A stretch of DNA of 64,000 nucleotides from Lachnospiraceae bacterium. GTDB lineage: Bacteria > Bacillota > Clostridia > Lachnospirales > Lachnospiraceae. The notes below the pieces were generated by a model that saw only the letters and a program-made list of their open reading frames with translations, had not been told where the DNA came from and did not search any database. Of the stretch, positions 11,308-21,345 are shown piece after piece; the first letter of the stretch is position 1, and each line of letters starts with the position of its first letter. The DNA lies in contig JAILAF010000069.1 of NCBI GenBank assembly GCA_024681775.1, positions 62,001 to 126,000 on the forward strand, read 5' to 3'. Both the position numbers and the translations under genes were made by a program.

Positions 11308-12712
11308 CTAAGCCAGCAGTTCAAAAAGGTCGTCCTCCTGGCCTGCATAGTCGTCCATGATGGACTCGAAGGCATCCAGGAAATAATGGTTGGATTCGGT
11401 GAACACGTCCTGTTTCAGGTAAAAGATCACCTTGTTGAGGAAGAGCTTTTTGTCCATCAGCTCCTCCTGGTGCACGAAGAAGGGTCCCAGCTTTTTATTT
11501 TCCGCGATACGCTTGTCCTTGGTGATGCCCTTGGCACGTGCGGCGCAGTTCTCCTCATCGATGGCGGTATTGACGATGGCGGCAAAGGTGGGCCAGTTCC
11601 GCTTCAGCTCTCCCTTGGCCTGGAGCTTCTTCACCAGCTCTCCAACTCTGCCGGTGGTGCCGGAAAGCACCTCCTCCAGCGGGCGGCTGCCGGCAAAAAT
11701 GCTGCGCTCCGCCTTCATGCTGTCGGGCAGCACGGAAAAATCGATGGGCACATAGTACAGCTCAAAACGGCGCTTGAAGGCACTGTCCATGACGAAGATA
11801 TTTTCATCCGCCGTGTTCATGGTGGCCAGGATGTTGAAGTTCGGAGGCAGCCAGATCTTGCCGTCGGTGAAGATGTTCTTCATCCAGGGATCCAGGCAGA
11901 AGTAGGCGCCGATGTCCCGGTTGATGATGGGATATTCGCTGCGGCCGCTCTCGCCCCGGTCCAGGAGCTGGAACACGTCTCCGAAGATGGAAGGCGCATT
12001 ACCGCGGTTGATCTCCTCCACGATGAGGTAGTACTTCTCCGAAGGATGCAGGAAAGCCGCCTTCAGGAGGGCGGTGAAGGGACCTGCCACGAAGGAATAG
12101 TCCAGCGGGCTGTCGGCGGATACCATGGGCTTGATGCATCCCACAAAATCGCCGTAGGTGTAGGCAGGGTGGAAGATGGCACGCTTGATGTGGGCGTCAC
12201 GGACCTTCTCATCGGGGTACTCCGCCTTCAGCAGCTCGTTGACGCTGTGGGACTTACCGGTACCGGGAGCGCCGTAGTACACCCGCTGGATGGGGCGCAT
12301 GTTCTCCTCGGTAAAGTAGAAATCCTGTCCTCTGGAATCGGGCGCTGCCGTGGATACCTCGCCGCCGGACCGCATGTAATAGGCCGCGTGCTCCTGGGGA
12401 TCCGCAAAGCGCTCTCCCCGCTCCAGCAGAAGCTTATACAGATGCATGCTGACCTCCAGCACGCCGTGCCCCTCCTCGTTCACCGAAGCGAAGTCCGGAT
12501 GCCGCATGAGCTGCTCGCAGGTCTCGTTAAAGCCCTTTGCATCGGAGCAATAGAAGAGGTTGGCCATGGCGTTGTTTTCCACCTTGGTGGCTCCTACCCG
12601 CAGCGCATAAGCGTAAGCACTGATCTCGTTGTCGGAGTAGGTGCGCATGCCGTCCTCCCGCGCCTGGCTCTTCAGCCAGTCACGGAACCGTTTTTCGTTT
12701 TCGCCGTCCAGT

Positions 12713-12720
<8 letters not shown>
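11308..12720 (-). CDS. McrB-like AAA+ ATPase/GTPase between uvrB and uvrA
   Basis: [17 protein letters not shown] (Walker A), [45 protein letters not shown] (Walker B + NRGN), [25 protein letters not shown]. Start overlaps the uvrB stop by 8 nt. No McrC-like partner seen. Confidence 0.83.
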
Positions 12721-14873: not shown

Positions 14874-15341
14874 TTATTCTTCTCTTTTTGCGTAAATCAG
14901 CGCCGCATTTCTTCCATATTCCGTCAGATCATAGTCCATCTGTTCACTTTCCATGAACTCCTCAAAATGCTCTGCAAGAAAAACGGCGGTTTCATCATCG
15001 GATTCTCCGTATAAGGCATCCCATAAATCCTCAGGCATCTGTATGTATGCTATGGGCTCTTCGTTGTCTCTGATCAGCGGATCTTCGCATCTGTCTTTCA
15101 GATATTCCATTAATGAACCGATATTTGAAGAGCACTGATTCATCAGAGGATCAAAGTTTTCGCTCCATACTTGGTCTCGATCCGGTATCTCATCGAAAAA
15201 TTGATACAGATCTATTCTCGTATCTTCATAAACAAATCCGCCATAAAGAAGGCTGGCATAGAGTTCATCAACATCATCCTGCATTTCTGCCAGAAATTTC
15301 ATATAAGAGTATCCAAATCTGAATTTTCCGTATTTATCCAT
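14874..15341 (-). CDS. Hypothetical acidic protein (155 aa)
   Basis: Intact [39 protein letters not shown]...; no family recognised. Confidence 0.6.
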
Positions 15342-15382: not shown

Positions 15383-15610
15383 TCATTTTTGAGTGTCCGA
15401 ACGCAGTTTTCCGTTGCAAATCACTTCCCCCTCGTATCTGTTTGCCCGATCCATAAGGTCACGGAACTGCTCATAGCTTAGGCCCGATTTCTTCTCTGCC
15501 TCTATGAGGCTTGCCCCTTGATTCAGCATCCTGAGAGCTGCCTCTTCCGCTTCATTCTGTGCCACATCCGTGATCATCTTCTCATATTTCTCGGTCCAGG
15601 GATCTGTCAT
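15383..15610 (-). CDS. Small hypothetical protein (75 aa)
   Basis: MTDPWTEKYEKMITDVAQNEAEEAALRMLNQGASLIEAEKKSGLSYEQFRDLMDRANR...; ATG overlaps the stop of an upstream 35-aa ORF (ATGA). Confidence 0.55.
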   Translation of the reverse strand: MTDPWTEKYEKMITDVAQNEAEEAALRMLNQGASLIEAEKKSGLSYEQFRDLMDRANRYEGEVICNGKLRSDTQK

Positions 15611-15714
15611 GGTCTTAACACCTCCGTTATACACCCTCCGCGCAGCACCGGCGCGCCTTTATCCAAATACTTCTCTATTTCTTTTCGATAGTTTTCAAAA
15701 ATCTTCTCTTCCAT
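15607..15714 (-). CDS. 35-aa small ORF translationally coupled to the next gene (not in ORF track)
   Basis: MEEKIFENYRKEIEKYLDKGAPVLRGGCITEVLRP*, preceded by AGAGGAG; its TGA overlaps the next ATG. Confidence 0.5.
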   Translation of the reverse strand: MEEKIFENYRKEIEKYLDKGAPVLRGGCITEVLRP

Positions 15715-15726
15715 TTTTGACTCCTC

Positions 15727-17112
15727 TCAAACGATCCTCTCCTTCAATTCCTCTCTGATCGGCAGTTCCCGGAAGGCTTCCGCGCACTCGGTATGCATGG
15801 GATAAATCCGGTCCTGCGGATCCACGGCGTTAATGACGGCGGCGATCATCTCCGGAGTTGCATGGCCGGAGGTATGGAGATGCTCCACATGGATGCCTTT
15901 TGCCTCCTGGCGTTTGATAAAACTGATCCACTTGTCATTTTTTGCTCTGTTGGGATATTTCTTCCCGTCTTTTCCGGTGTATTCCTCCTGAAGGTATCCG
16001 TCCCACATGGACCAGATCAGCACGGGCATCTTTTTGATCCTGTCTTCACGGTAGGCCTCAACAAATCTGTCGATGTAGGCCTCCTGATAGTCCTCCGGCT
16101 TGATCACCGCCAGGAATCCGAACTGTTCCATCATCTCTCCCTGCGAAAGGGGAGAGTCCAGCCGTTGTCCCGGAGGCACAAAATCAAACGCAGGAAGCAG
16201 CGCCACTTTATCAAAGCGGTACACCTCGGCCCAGTCCCCCGCAGTCTCGGTGAAGAGCTTCAGCTGCTCCCGAAAATAATCGTTGTACACGTACATATAC
16301 CTGCCGTAGCGGAGGTTTGTAGACTGGGCAGCCTGATAGAAGCTGGCCAGGGAATCCAGATTGGTGGAGGAGCAGACCAGGAAAGCCCATTTGTGCTCCT
16401 TCAGGAATTTGGAAGCTTCCCGCTGCATCTGCGGCTCTGTCAGCACCTTCTCTCCGGGCCGGCTCATCATGGTTCCTTCGATCACCAGAGCATCCACCCT
16501 GCGCTTTCCGTAATCTCGCACATATTTATAGATGACTCGAAGCATCACTTTTCCGCGTCTCCCATGGCCTCTGAAATCTCCCGTGTGCAGGATCCGATAC
16601 CGGCCGTCCGGAGAGTCCGCGTCCTCCGCTTCGATGAGAAACATGTAGGCGTCGTAGGCGGAATGATCCACACTGTATGGCTCTATGGTAAAGCCCGGAA
16701 GGGTGATGTGTTCATATGTGCGCTCTCCCCACCGAAAGACGTGTACCCGGGAGTCATCCTTCAGGAGCGCTGCTTCTGCCCTGTGCAGCGCCGCATCCTG
16801 CACATGCTCGCTTTTTCCGAGAGCATCCTGGATGTTGATCATGACCTGCCTCGCGGTGACACCCATATACAGAGGGACATTCTCCGGAATCTCCATGAGC
16901 CTGCCGACGTGATCCCCGTGATAGTGGGTGAAAAACACTGCGTCCACCGGTTCCTCATCCCAGGGATATTGAAAATCCTTTTCTTTACCGCTTCCGGGAA
17001 GAAACGAACCATAATCTATCATGATCCGGTGTATGTCCCCTTTGTATTCTGTTGAAATGACAGTGACGCACCCGCCGATCTGATTCCTCTGAAAAACTCT
17101 GATATCTGTCAT
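15727..17112 (-). CDS. MBL-fold metallo-hydrolase, RNase J/beta-CASP-like
   Basis: FFTHYHGDHVGRLMEIPENVPLYMG, ILHTGDFRGHG, VEHLHTSGHATPEMIAAVINAVDPQDRIYPMHTE. Confidence 0.83.
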   Translation of the reverse strand: MTDIRVFQRNQIGGCVTVISTEYKGDIHRIMIDYGSFLPGSGKEKDFQYPWDEEPVDAVFFTHYHGDHVGRLMEIPENVPLYMGVTARQVMINIQDALGKSEHVQDAALHRAEAALLKDDSRVHVFRWGERTYEHITLPGFTIEPYSVDHSAYDAYMFLIEAEDADSPDGRYRILHTGDFRGHGRRGKVMLRVIYKYVRDYGKRRVDALVIEGTMMSRPGEKVLTEPQMQREASKFLKEHKWAFLVCSSTNLDSLASFYQAAQSTNLRYGRYMYVYNDYFREQLKLFTETAGDWAEVYRFDKVALLPAFDFVPPGQRLDSPLSQGEMMEQFGFLAVIKPEDYQEAYIDRFVEAYREDRIKKMPVLIWSMWDGYLQEEYTGKDGKKYPNRAKNDKWISFIKRQEAKGIHVEHLHTSGHATPEMIAAVINAVDPQDRIYPMHTECAEAFRELPIREELKERIV

Positions 17113-17151
17113 ATACCCACCATATTAAGAATGATGACATAGTCCGTTTTA

Positions 17152-17715
17152 TCATTTTTTACTTCTGAAAAAAAAATCATCAATTCCGTCAAGCCAGTTT
17201 TGCAGGGGCACTTCGGGTCGCGGCAGTTTCACTCTCCATTTATCTCGGTCATCGATGCTTAGAGAATTCATCGTGCCGGTTTCAAACTCATAAGTAAACT
17301 CTCTGCCATCCGATCCTGTACCTGCAATGTTAACACGCAGTGACGCGTGCCTCCAGTAAAGCAGAACGGGAAGGACCGCATAGAACTCCCGTTCATAGTA
17401 CAGCCATCGGCAATCCACAGGATCGACAAGATCAAACATCATCTCAGGAATCCCTGTTTTCCTGAATTTCTTTAGCGCCTGATAAAAGTTTACATCAAAT
17501 ACTGACCCCCTCTTATCTGTCGCATCAAACAGGAAATCCTCATAACGCAGCCATTTTTCGTCTGTTTTACTGTTTACAATCCATAACTCGGATTGGAGTA
17601 CTCCATCTGAAAGTGCTACAGATCCGGTATCCTCATCTACGTCTGACTTATATTCGATATAAAGGTCCGGTGTTATATCGATATGGTAGTTGAACGCAAT
17701 ATGTTTCATCTTCAT
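17152..17715 (-). CDS. Hypothetical protein (187 aa)
   Basis: Intact ORF MKMKHIAFNYHIDITPDLYIEYKSDVDEDTG...; no family recognised. Confidence 0.55.
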   Translation of the reverse strand: MKMKHIAFNYHIDITPDLYIEYKSDVDEDTGSVALSDGVLQSELWIVNSKTDEKWLRYEDFLFDATDKRGSVFDVNFYQALKKFRKTGIPEMMFDLVDPVDCRWLYYEREFYAVLPVLLYWRHASLRVNIAGTGSDGREFTYEFETGTMNSLSIDDRDKWRVKLPRPEVPLQNWLDGIDDFFFRSKK

Positions 17716-17846
17716 CGTTCGTCACCCTCTCTGAATCATCAGTTATTCTTACAACGCACAAATTGTGATTGTGTTGATGCAAATAGTGTTCTATAGCATA
17801 CTACAGTAAAAAATTCAATGCACGCTTTTTGGCACATGCTATTTTG

Positions 17847-18989
17847 CTATTTTCGGACAACGGAGTCACTGGGAAATTTCAGATCTTCGACAGAGGTAAA
17901 CAACTCCTCCCGCAAAATTACATTCTCCGGGCCTTCCGCAGCCAGGCATATCGCTTTTTCCGCATTTGCCAGGAAAGACTCATCCAGCCCACATTTTTTC
18001 AATTCTTTGCGGTACATATCTCTGCAGCCGATCAACGACTTCCGCGCCAGCCGGTAAGAATTTTCCGTGAGATTGTCACTCCAACGTACGCCCACTTTCG
18101 GACTGTTGGTAAAAAGGAACAGAATTCGGATGTTACGGGCATATTCCTGCAATTCTTCCGAAGGCAGTTCCTCGGATCCGTCAGCCGCTTTGATGGGCTC
18201 GCCGTTTCGAAGCGCAGCCAGATAGTTGTACTCCCGAATCAGCACTCTCACAAAATCCTGATTCCCGCAGGCTTCCAGCGCTGCGAGGTAATCCTTGAAA
18301 TGGGCTGCTACATTCTTTTTCTCGGCGGTCTCCTCTCCTTTGGAATTCTTCGGCCGAACGTTCCAACCCTTCAGGGAATCCTCCAATCCGCCTGTCACAG
18401 CCTTATCCTGGCATTTGTACTCGATGAGAAGAATGCTTTTCTTCTCCGGACAGATGGCGATGAGATCGATTTCTGCCTGTTTGCCCTCCCCACGGGTAGT
18501 GCCCTTCAGATCTCCCTTGGGAATCGCAGCTTCCATATCGCAGATTGAGTAATCCCCCGGCAAAAATGTCTGATGCCGCAGGGCGATCACCTGCTCGCTC
18601 TTCCGCTCCTTGTCTCGTTTCAGTCCCTCCCGAATACCGGCTTTGATTCCTTTTAACGTTTGAGGTTGAAAGTAAAAAACCTTCTTATCGGTTCTGGGCT
18701 TCCAAAGGTCATGCTCCTCAGTAATCTGTTCCATGACATATTCCTTGTACGAACTCGGGAATCTGTACCATTTTTTCTTTTTCACGGATCCAAGAGGTTT
18801 CCCCTCATAGTAAAACCGCAGGCAGTCCGTCCCCGGCATTGCAAGAATTTCTCCTCCTGCAAAGGAATCCCGGGATGCTTTTGAAATGTCCCTCTTCAGA
18901 TTATGATTTTCCTTCAGACAGAGGAAACTTTTAACATCGTCCAAAGTCTCCTGATCATCGTAGTTCTCCATGTTTCTCGTAAATTCCAT
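17847..18989 (-). CDS. PD-(D/E)XK nuclease-like protein
   Basis: QAEIDLIAICPEKKSILLIEYKCQ matches the ...D...(E)xK arrangement of PD-(D/E)XK folds; preceded by GAGGAG. Confidence 0.58.
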   Translation of the reverse strand: MEFTRNMENYDDQETLDDVKSFLCLKENHNLKRDISKASRDSFAGGEILAMPGTDCLRFYYEGKPLGSVKKKKWYRFPSSYKEYVMEQITEEHDLWKPRTDKKVFYFQPQTLKGIKAGIREGLKRDKERKSEQVIALRHQTFLPGDYSICDMEAAIPKGDLKGTTRGEGKQAEIDLIAICPEKKSILLIEYKCQDKAVTGGLEDSLKGWNVRPKNSKGEETAEKKNVAAHFKDYLAALEACGNQDFVRVLIREYNYLAALRNGEPIKAADGSEELPSEELQEYARNIRILFLFTNSPKVGVRWSDNLTENSYRLARKSLIGCRDMYRKELKKCGLDESFLANAEKAICLAAEGPENVILREELFTSVEDLKFPSDSVVRK

Positions 18990-19008
18990 ATCTTTACTCC
19001 TCAGTATC

Positions 19009-19104
19009 TCAGACGATCCTCTCCTTCAACTCCTCTCGGATAGGAACCTCTCGGAAGGCTTCCGCGCACTCGATATGCATTGGCCAGATCCGGTCCCGGG
19101 GATC
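19009..19104 (-). pseudogene. C-terminal remnant of a second MBL hydrolase gene
   Basis: Minus strand encodes DPRDRIWPMHIECAEAFREVPIREELKERIV*, near-identical to the end of the 15727-17112 product (DPQDRIYPMHTECAEAFRELPIREELKERIV*). Confidence 0.88.
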
Positions 19105-19137
19105 CGTGATGCATCCTCTCATATGCATCTGCACATT

Positions 19138-21345
19138 CTAGCCGATGGCGGCGAGTCCCTCCTTGTAGGCATCGGCATAATGGATCTTGAAGTATGCCAG
19201 CCGTACTGCCATCATGGCATAGGCCACTGCATGTGCTTTCGGGAACAGGTAGCGGACCTTCCGGCAGACATTGAGGTACCAGTCCGGCATTCCCGCTTCC
19301 GTCATGAGAAGTGCCTGCTCTTCCTTCAGTCCCTTGCCCTTTCGTACCTGTTCCATGATCCTGTACGCATCCTCCCTACCGATGCCATATGACAACAGTG
19401 TCAGCATGACATCGTCTCTGGATGCGATGCATTCCTTCAAGGTGATGGTGCCCCTGCGGAAGAGGGGCTCCTGATTATCCATCCACACATCCGTTCCGTG
19501 GCACAGTCCGCTGATCTTCACCAGGTCCTCAAAGGTCCGGGCACCGGTCTGCGCAATGACGCGCCTTACATAATCTGCTCCGTATTCCGGGATATCCCGA
19601 ATCTCCGGAATGCTCTCGTCGCAGAGATAGGACAGAACCTCCTTCTCCTCCAGGGGGATGTCCTCGATTTTGACGCCGGTGTGATCCTGCAGGAAGTGCA
19701 GCAGTTCGTAACTGTCATGTCCCAGGATATCCAACTTCAGCAGGCTCCCCCACAGTTCGTGGTATTCAAAGGCCGTGGTCACGGCCTTTCCATATTCGGG
19801 ATGAATGAGGGGCGTAAAGCTTGCCAGTTCCTCTCCCTCGGGACAGACCATGATGCCGCCGGGATGGATCCCGTTCACCTTCTTCGTTCCCGCCAGGTCC
19901 TCCGTCAAAATCTCCATGAGCTCCCGATCGGGCAGATTCCTGTTCTTCCCATCATAGTATTTCTTGATCATGGCCTCCGCCTGCTGTCTCGTCCGAACCC
20001 CGATGGTCCCCGCATGGCAGGTCTCTCCCACACCGGGGAGCTCCTTCACGGTCTCCTGCACGGTCTCCCTGATGGAAGGAGCAAAATTGATGTCGATGTC
20101 CGGCTCCTTGTCCAGGTGGAATCCCAGGAAAGTTTCGACAGGAATGTCATATCCGCCGCAGGCAGCGGAAAGGGGATTGATCTCTGTGATGCCGCACAGG
20201 TATGCCACAAAGGAAGATCCAACGGACCCTCTGCAGCCCGCGGGATACCCTGCCTCCAGAGACTTCTGCACCAGCTTACGCCACATCAGGTAATACCCTG
20301 CGTAACCGTTTTTGCAGATGCCGGGCAGCTCCCGGTCCAGGCGCGCCCTCACCTCGGGATCCGGGGTTTCTCCGAAGAGCTCCTTCACTCTGTCCTCACA
20401 GATCCGGGTAATCTCCTCCTCCGCATTCGGCCATACCGGGCGGAATTTTCCCTCTCTGAGAGGAGCAATATATTCGATCTGCTGCTCGATCAGCTTCCGA
20501 TTTTCAAAGAGCCGTTCTGTGATCCCCTGTAACTCCTCCGGATCTCCCTTGGCAGGAGCGTAAAAATACGAATAGTAAGGCTCATCCTCATCCATCAGCT
20601 CGTGAAAGACTTTATCCTCCTCTGCCTTGCCCGCTTCGGAGATAAGGATTTCATAGGAAAGCCGGTCCTTCTCGTTAAAATACTGGGCATCGGATCCTGC
20701 CACCATGGGTACATCCCCCAGCTTCACCGAGCCGTAATACAGGTAAACGGGATCGTGCGTCTCGGAAGGAGTCACCTCCAGGAAATCATAATAGGCCGCT
20801 TTTTTCTTCAGCTCATCCAGGGCATCCTCCTCCATGGTCTCATTAAGGGAGGACACTTTCCCACGGATCAACTCCCGGATTTCTCCGCCAACACCTGCGG
20901 AAACTACCAGCAAGCCTTCCCGGTACCGGTCCAAAAGCGCCCTGGAGATTACCGGATATTTGGGATCTGCAGCTTTCAGACAGGCCTCCGTGATCATGCG
21001 ATAGAGATTCCGGAGACCCGTTTCATTTTTCACATAGAGCAGTACGGAATAGATTTTTCCGTCCTCTCCCCGCATGTCCCCCTCCATACCATAGATCAAC
21101 TTCAGGTAATCCTCGATATTTGCCTGTTCTCCGCCATCCTCACACTGCTTCCGATAGGCGTCCCAGAGCTTCTTCCATTCAGCATATGCTGCAGGAAACG
21201 CCTGAACCGTCATATGATCCGTGATAGCCAGTGCTCTGTAGCTGCAGACCCAGGCAAACCTCACCAGTTCCCGGGGATCCATGAGTCCACGCCCCTCCGA
21301 CATGGTGGTGTGACAATGCAGTTCGATGATTCCGTTCTCGTTCAT
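19138..21345 (-). CDS. Compact PolC-like DNA polymerase III alpha protein (PHP + polymerase core, no exonuclease insert)
   Basis: PHP: GIIELHCHTTMSEGRGLM...ALAITDHMTVQAFPAAY; polymerase: LVQKSLEAGYPAGCRGSVGSSFVAYLCGITEINPL, FLGFHLDKEPDIDINF, LLKLDILGHDSYELLHFLQDHTG, SGLCHGTDVWMDNQE, VRYLFPKAHAVAYAMMAVRLAYFKIHY. 735 aa versus ~1400 for canonical PolC. Confidence 0.88.
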   Translation of the reverse strand: MNENGIIELHCHTTMSEGRGLMDPRELVRFAWVCSYRALAITDHMTVQAFPAAYAEWKKLWDAYRKQCEDGGEQANIEDYLKLIYGMEGDMRGEDGKIYSVLLYVKNETGLRNLYRMITEACLKAADPKYPVISRALLDRYREGLLVVSAGVGGEIRELIRGKVSSLNETMEEDALDELKKKAAYYDFLEVTPSETHDPVYLYYGSVKLGDVPMVAGSDAQYFNEKDRLSYEILISEAGKAEEDKVFHELMDEDEPYYSYFYAPAKGDPEELQGITERLFENRKLIEQQIEYIAPLREGKFRPVWPNAEEEITRICEDRVKELFGETPDPEVRARLDRELPGICKNGYAGYYLMWRKLVQKSLEAGYPAGCRGSVGSSFVAYLCGITEINPLSAACGGYDIPVETFLGFHLDKEPDIDINFAPSIRETVQETVKELPGVGETCHAGTIGVRTRQQAEAMIKKYYDGKNRNLPDRELMEILTEDLAGTKKVNGIHPGGIMVCPEGEELASFTPLIHPEYGKAVTTAFEYHELWGSLLKLDILGHDSYELLHFLQDHTGVKIEDIPLEEKEVLSYLCDESIPEIRDIPEYGADYVRRVIAQTGARTFEDLVKISGLCHGTDVWMDNQEPLFRRGTITLKECIASRDDVMLTLLSYGIGREDAYRIMEQVRKGKGLKEEQALLMTEAGMPDWYLNVCRKVRYLFPKAHAVAYAMMAVRLAYFKIHYADAYKEGLAAIG

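What the first reader, a model, noticed from the sequence alone, without database searches (positions are those of the whole stretch)
15727..19137. Recombination scar: second MBL C-terminus downstream of the PolC-like gene
Seen: 19009-19104 encodes DPRDRIWPMHIECAEAFREVPIREELKERIV*, matching the end of the MBL gene at 15727. The remnant is in frame with and directly after the PolC-like stop (TAG AAT GTG ...). The two ~96-bp direct repeats bracket a 3.3-kb segment with a PD-(D/E)XK-like nuclease, a hypothetical and the intact MBL gene. Inference: a single-crossover insertion or tandem duplication plus deletion at an ancestral PolC-like-MBL pair, so this locus is a turnover hotspot.
Basis: partly seen in the sequence, partly recalled or inferred. 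Interest (0 to 1): 0.72.

Follow-up and report, generated by a model that had tools for sequence, protein, structure and literature searches.

The report
Recombination scar from nuclease cassette import
A 96-base leftover of a second metallo-beta-lactamase-fold nuclease gene marks where a foreign nuclease gene pair was spliced into the chromosome of a Lachnospiraceae bacterium, and it shows that an uncharacterised family of paired nucleases changes partners by recombination.

Summary
Observation confirmed. Bases 19009-19104 (minus strand) encode the last 31 codons plus stop of a second MBL gene, in frame after the PolC-like stop; the 99-nt direct repeat is 85% identical. The predicted 'empty' arrangement exists: same-genus MAG Tb.RUG.395 (L032) has PolC-like-MBL-h83-h155-uvrB without remnant, nuclease or h187. 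But the inserted piece is not the 3.3 kb between the repeats; it is about 1.98 kb (17126-19101): remnant + nuc380 + h187. The MBL body is resident, yet its first 141 nt are foreign: 70% identical to L032 (97% downstream), 89% to locus L041 (68% downstream; p=2e-7). So foreign DNA entered through a homologous crossover inside MBL (nt 141-253) and a short-homology (GGAT) join behind the PolC-like gene. The remnant is best read as the 3' tip of the donor MBL that preceded nuc380, 20 nt away, as in MBL-nuclease operons. Across 32 non-redundant MBL loci, adjacent genes carry a PD-(D/E)XK motif in 16/45 cases versus 7/145 controls (p=7e-7), with several unrelated nuclease families and recurrent WYL regulators. 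This looks like an uncharacterised, probably defence-type module with a constant MBL and exchangeable nuclease partners. Function is untested.

The parts
19138..21345 (-). polCL: 735-aa accessory PolC-like gene (PHP, DNA_pol3_alpha, finger domains); left flank of the import, orthologous to L032 (98% aa)
19102..19137 (-). spacer behind the PolC-like stop, shared with L032 up to the GGAT microhomology; left junction
   Evidence: junction assigned to within a few nt
19009..19104 (-). remnant of a second MBL gene (MBL'), last 31 codons plus stop, about 20 nt before nuc380
17126..19101 (.). net insertion relative to the empty site in L032 (about 1.98 kb); GC 0.466 against a window mean of 0.564 (only 1 of 125 same-size tiles is as low)
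17847..18989 (-). nuc380: putative PD-(D/E)XK nuclease (EIDLI...ILLIEYK motif), no Pfam/NCBIfam/PADLOC hit, one weak match in 193 relatives; a distant relative lies directly 3' of an MBL in L039
17152..17715 (-). h187: orphan 187-aa protein, GC3 0.44, no relative in 193 genomes
15727..17112 (-). intact MBL: beta-CASP-type metallo-beta-lactamase-fold protein (HYHGDH, HTSGHA), hybrid gene
16972..17112 (-). foreign 5' tract of MBL: 69.5% nt identity to L032 and 88.7% to L041; downstream 97.1% and 68.2%
16860..16971 (-). 112 nt identical to L032, covering the metal-binding motif region; right-hand homologous crossover lies here
16032..16207 (-). two further divergent patches in MBL (nt 906-969 and 1041-1081, 20-28% diverged) inside a 3% background: separate small conversion tracts
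15383..15634 (-). h83, conserved downstream of MBL in L032 (right flank)
14874..15341 (-). h155, small protein that travels with polCL/MBL in L037, L041, L043, L148

Best explanation
The remnant is the 3' tip of a donor MBL gene that formed an operon with nuc380. A foreign segment carrying [end of donor MBL'-nuc380-h187-start of an MBL] was imported into a resident PolC-like-MBL pair. On the right it joined by homologous crossover inside the conserved metal-binding region of MBL (nt 141-253), giving a hybrid but intact MBL. On the left it joined behind the PolC-like gene at a 4-nt match (GGAT), cutting the donor MBL to its last 31 codons. This is the pattern of homology-facilitated illegitimate recombination. 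Shown: empty site, insertion borders, foreign 5' tract, coding-type divergence of the remnant. Inferred: one-step import, donor gene order, operon origin. The biological meaning (inferred) is partner exchange in an MBL plus PD-(D/E)XK nuclease module, most likely anti-phage or anti-plasmid, in which the MBL is the constant part and the recombination handle.
For: Empty site in L032/G003. The divergent tract abuts the insertion and ends abruptly (43 differences in 141 nt, then 112 nt identical; scan statistic 21 against at most 16 in 5000 permutations). The window, not L032, switches affinity: window-L041 88.7% in the tract and 68.2% after it (p=2e-7); L032-L041 72.3% and 67.6% (p=0.28). The insert is GC-poor and its genes are practically absent from 193 relatives. 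Remnant-nuc380 spacing is operon-like, and in L039 a nuc380-like protein follows an intact MBL (shuffle p about 1e-5). MBL-nuclease adjacency is general (p=6.5e-7).
Against: A 4-nt microhomology can be chance. The remnant looks resident-like (84% to resident, 60-68% to L033/L034) whereas the 5' tract is L041-like, so one import needs a donor with two different MBL alleles or a mosaic donor. Only one empty-site genome is available. No donor locus with MBL'-nuc380-h187-MBL was found. The PD-(D/E)XK assignment of nuc380 rests on a motif and a weak relative; its structure model failed (pLDDT 33).
Confidence: 0.65

Rival explanations
1. Campbell-type single crossover: a circular donor with one MBL-nuc380-h187 unit recombined in MBL, giving two hybrid MBL copies that flank the cassette; the upstream copy (resident 5', donor 3') then lost all but its last 31 codons.
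For: Predicts a downstream MBL with donor 5' end and resident 3' end, and an upstream donor 3' end, as seen; needs only one MBL in the donor.
Against: Needs a second event (deletion of about 1.3 kb). A single L041-like donor should give a remnant about 68% identical to the resident; it is 84%. No gene of a replicon or integrase lies in the insert.
Confidence: 0.2
2. Ancestral tandem MBL'-nuc380-h187-MBL; L032 collapsed it by MBL x MBL recombination, and the window lineage lost the body of MBL'.
For: Explains both loci by losses only; the L032 MBL 5' end would then be MBL'.
Against: The window, not L032, carries the tract with changed affinity; the insert is GC-poor and its genes are absent elsewhere in the genus.
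Confidence: 0.08
3. Recent local tandem duplication of MBL with later deletion, no import.
For: Two copies of the MBL 3' end in direct orientation.
Against: The remnant has 13 codons that differ from the resident, mostly synonymously, whereas resident and L032 differ in 3: the split is older than the strain split. nuc380 and h187 do not come from the locus.
Confidence: 0.03
4. Assembly artefact that joins two strains in a metagenome bin.
For: The source is a draft genome of 143 contigs, and strain mixtures are common in such bins.
Against: Longest exact stretch shared by the two repeats is 21 nt; both flanks are colinear with L032 over about 9 kb.
Confidence: 0.04

Closest known systems
Homology-facilitated illegitimate recombination, and module displacement in T6SS effector-immunity arrays (PMC5361080, PMC3240628)
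   Same: Incoming module anchored by a homologous stretch at one end and joined illegitimately at the other; leaves gene-end remnants and hybrid genes.
   Different: Here the anchor is the 5' part of an MBL-fold nuclease gene, and the cargo is a putative nuclease plus an orphan gene, not effector-immunity genes.
MBL nuclease-trypsin protease pairs in Hachiman, AVAST, Lamassu and DRT (PMC12799240)
   Same: An MBL-fold nuclease gene repeatedly paired with a partner gene in accessory, defence-type loci.
   Different: The published MBLs are compared with the ComEC-type nuclease and pair with proteases; this one is beta-CASP/RNase J-like and pairs with PD-(D/E)XK-type proteins of several families.
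RNase J / EF2904 (PDB 2az4) beta-CASP proteins
   Same: Fold and metal motifs: profile E=6.9e-27 to 2az4; Foldseek top hits are RNase J and 2az4.
   Different: 12-18% identity in those hits, shorter than RNase J, far below the RNase J family cut-off (24.9 vs 400 bits), accessory distribution.

Membership tests
beta-CASP metallo-beta-lactamase superfamily (MBL gene) | HxHxDH metal motif, further His/Asp ligands, C-terminal HTSGHA-type motif, beta-CASP/RMMBL fold | tested here: met
   Invariant H63 H65 D67 H68 H150 D179 H413 H417 in 42 sequences; pLDDT 92.6 model matches RNase J/2az4; RMMBL E=3.4e-4
RNase J | Passes the curated RNase J model | tested here: not met
   TIGR00649 24.9 bits against cut-off 400
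PD-(D/E)XK nuclease (nuc380) | D...(E/D)xK catalytic motif | tested here: met
   EIDLI...ILLIEYK, conserved in the distant relative of L039
PD-(D/E)XK nuclease (nuc380) | alpha-beta-beta-beta-alpha-beta core fold | tested here: inconclusive
   AlphaFold model with 2 sequences pLDDT 33.4; no Pfam family
Homology-facilitated illegitimate recombination | Homologous anchor at one end with a foreign tract running into it | tested here: met
Homology-facilitated illegitimate recombination | Short-homology, non-homologous join at the other end | tested here: inconclusive
   GGAT shared by the L032 spacer and the MBL 3' end; 4 nt may be chance
Lamassu | LmuA-type effector with an LmuB SMC-like partner | tested here: not met
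   Weak LmuA model hit to the MBL (E=0.0018; 20 of 42 relatives, best 5e-6), but no LmuB hit among the seven window proteins scanned
Any catalogued anti-phage system | PADLOC model for nuc380, h187, polCL, h155 or h83 | tested here: not met
Anti-phage activity | Protection in a phage challenge assay | not testable with these tools
   needs an experiment

The most novel reading that the evidence does not exclude
A widespread, uncatalogued two-nuclease system: a constant beta-CASP MBL nuclease paired with exchangeable PD-(D/E)XK nucleases (sometimes with a PolC-like protein and a WYL regulator), in Lachnospiraceae, other Clostridia, Bacteroidota and plasmids of Alphaproteobacteria, that diversifies by recombination through the MBL gene.
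Probability: 0.4. Interest if true: 0.72.

Novelty: new variant of a known kind. Interest (0 to 1): 0.5.

Why it matters
The scar catches a nuclease cassette import with both borders readable, and it leads to a pairing of an RNase J-like MBL with many unrelated PD-(D/E)XK proteins that the family and defence libraries used here do not name. If the pairing is a defence system, the MBL would be its constant core and the nucleases its replaceable specificity or effector part, which can be tested directly.

Tried and rejected
nuc380 relatives in 193 genomes: one weak match; viral contigs and plasmids: none. h187 relatives: none. MBL in phage records: none. AlphaFold of nuc380: unusable. PolC-like catalytic loss: first suspected from PDIDIN, rejected because the housekeeping PolC of the same genomes has the same residue. 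A junction register in which the remnant keeps the MBL' start codons was considered (14/18 with a 15-nt gap) and judged no better than the ungapped one (13/18), by hand on the sequences. polCL is too rare for a genus-wide comparison (3 of 31 genomes); stretches of about 10 kb upstream of uvrB in 13 other genus genomes lack polCL, MBL, h83 and h155.

Full report
Observation. The remnant is real. Minus-strand 19104-19009 encodes DPRDRIWPMHIECAEAFREVPIREELKERIV and a stop, in frame behind the PolC-like stop; it is part of a 99-nt direct repeat with the MBL 3' end (85%, spacing 3282). A search of the whole genome finds only these two places.

Empty site. Alignment shows continuous homology on the left down to window base 19102 (94.5%) and on the right from 17125 on (91.7%), so about 1.98 kb (17126-19101) is extra in the window. 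That piece has GC 0.466 against 0.564 for the window (only 1 of 125 tiles as low), and its two genes are practically absent from 193 related genomes. The 3.3-kb interval between the repeats is therefore not the inserted unit.

Age of the remnant. Compared with the resident MBL it has 9 synonymous and 4 non-synonymous codon differences; resident and L032 differ in 3 synonymous codons. It is 84% identical to resident and L032, and 60-68% to the next relatives L033 and L034. It is thus a divergent allele that evolved as a working gene, not a copy made in this lineage after its split from L032.

Hybrid MBL. Window and L032 MBL differ at 43 of the first 141 nt, are then identical for 112 nt, and differ at about 3% elsewhere apart from two short patches (clustering exceeds all 5000 permutations). 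In the first 141 nt the window is 88.7% identical to L041 and 69.5% to L032; downstream these become 68.2% and 97.1% (p=2e-7 for the L041 shift). L032 shows no shift against L041 (p=0.28). So the window received foreign DNA that runs from the insert into the MBL and ends within nt 141-253, over the metal-binding region.

Mechanism. A homologous anchor at one end and an illegitimate, short-homology join (GGAT) at the other is the pattern of homology-facilitated illegitimate recombination (PMC3240628; proposed for T6SS module displacement, with an anchor and retained gene ends, in PMC5361080). The remnant is then where the incoming molecule was cut. Which one happened is inference. The remnant is resident-like and the 5' tract is L041-like, so the donor probably carried two MBL alleles or was itself mosaic.

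What the genes are. The MBL is a beta-CASP-type protein: metal motifs invariant in 42 homologues, confident model, nearest solved relatives EF2904 (2az4) and RNase J, but well below the RNase J cut-off. In 32 non-redundant loci, 16 of 45 adjacent same-strand genes carry a PD-(D/E)XK motif against 7 of 145 genes three or more places away (Fisher p=6.5e-7). One of the 16 (L052) looks spurious, and by eye several loci have variants that the pattern misses (for example the FWEAK motif in L176 and L177). The pattern was written after the first nucleases had been seen, so the p-value is indicative. The nucleases fall in different sequence families without Pfam entries and lie upstream or downstream of MBL. 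WYL-domain regulators are recurrent neighbours. In L039 a protein related to nuc380 directly follows MBL (a phmmer search did not list it, so the relation is distant), which supports reading remnant plus nuc380 (about 20 nt apart) as a former MBL-nuclease operon.

Function. Accessory distribution, diverse nuclease partners, WYL regulators and plasmid carriage suggest a defence-type module; no PADLOC system is met. This is inference. Literature searches for the pairing showed no description of it; the closest is the MBL-protease pair (PMC12799240), which differs in MBL type and partner. The library lacks most subscription papers.

Verdict. A confirmed recombination scar, better explained than at first: import of a foreign nuclease cassette at an MBL gene. 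The event type is known; the module it exposes is not described in the sources searched.

Noticed in passing
19138-21345; L155:3225-7704; L076; L037; L041; L148: Accessory PolC-like genes (PHP, palm and finger parts, no exonuclease domain match) sit with this MBL in several lineages; in L155 MBL, nuclease and PolC-like genes are contiguous. Possible third component.
   Followed up: partly
L041:8001-8867: MBL truncated after codon 286 and followed by an acetyltransferase-like gene: another decayed MBL beside a PolC-like gene.
   Followed up: partly
L148:4223-6061: PolC-like gene in same-genus G018 looks decaying: it gives two separate matches and has changes in conserved catalytic-region motifs.
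   Followed up: no
14874-15341: h155 travels with PolC-like/MBL loci (L037, L041, L043, L148) but has no known family; possibly an immunity or regulatory protein.
   Followed up: no
11308-12720: McrB-like AAA ATPase gene overlapping the end of uvrB, conserved in L032; no McrC-like partner was looked for.
   Followed up: no
L035:9366-10070; L155:9057-9755; L175; L156: Calcineurin-like phosphatases (L035, L155, L175) and 3'-5' exonuclease-like genes (L156, L175) recur near this MBL.
   Followed up: no
L152:5430-7880; L051:7995-10397: MBL with a long C-terminal extension (816 and 800 aa in all), perhaps a fused partner domain.
   Followed up: no
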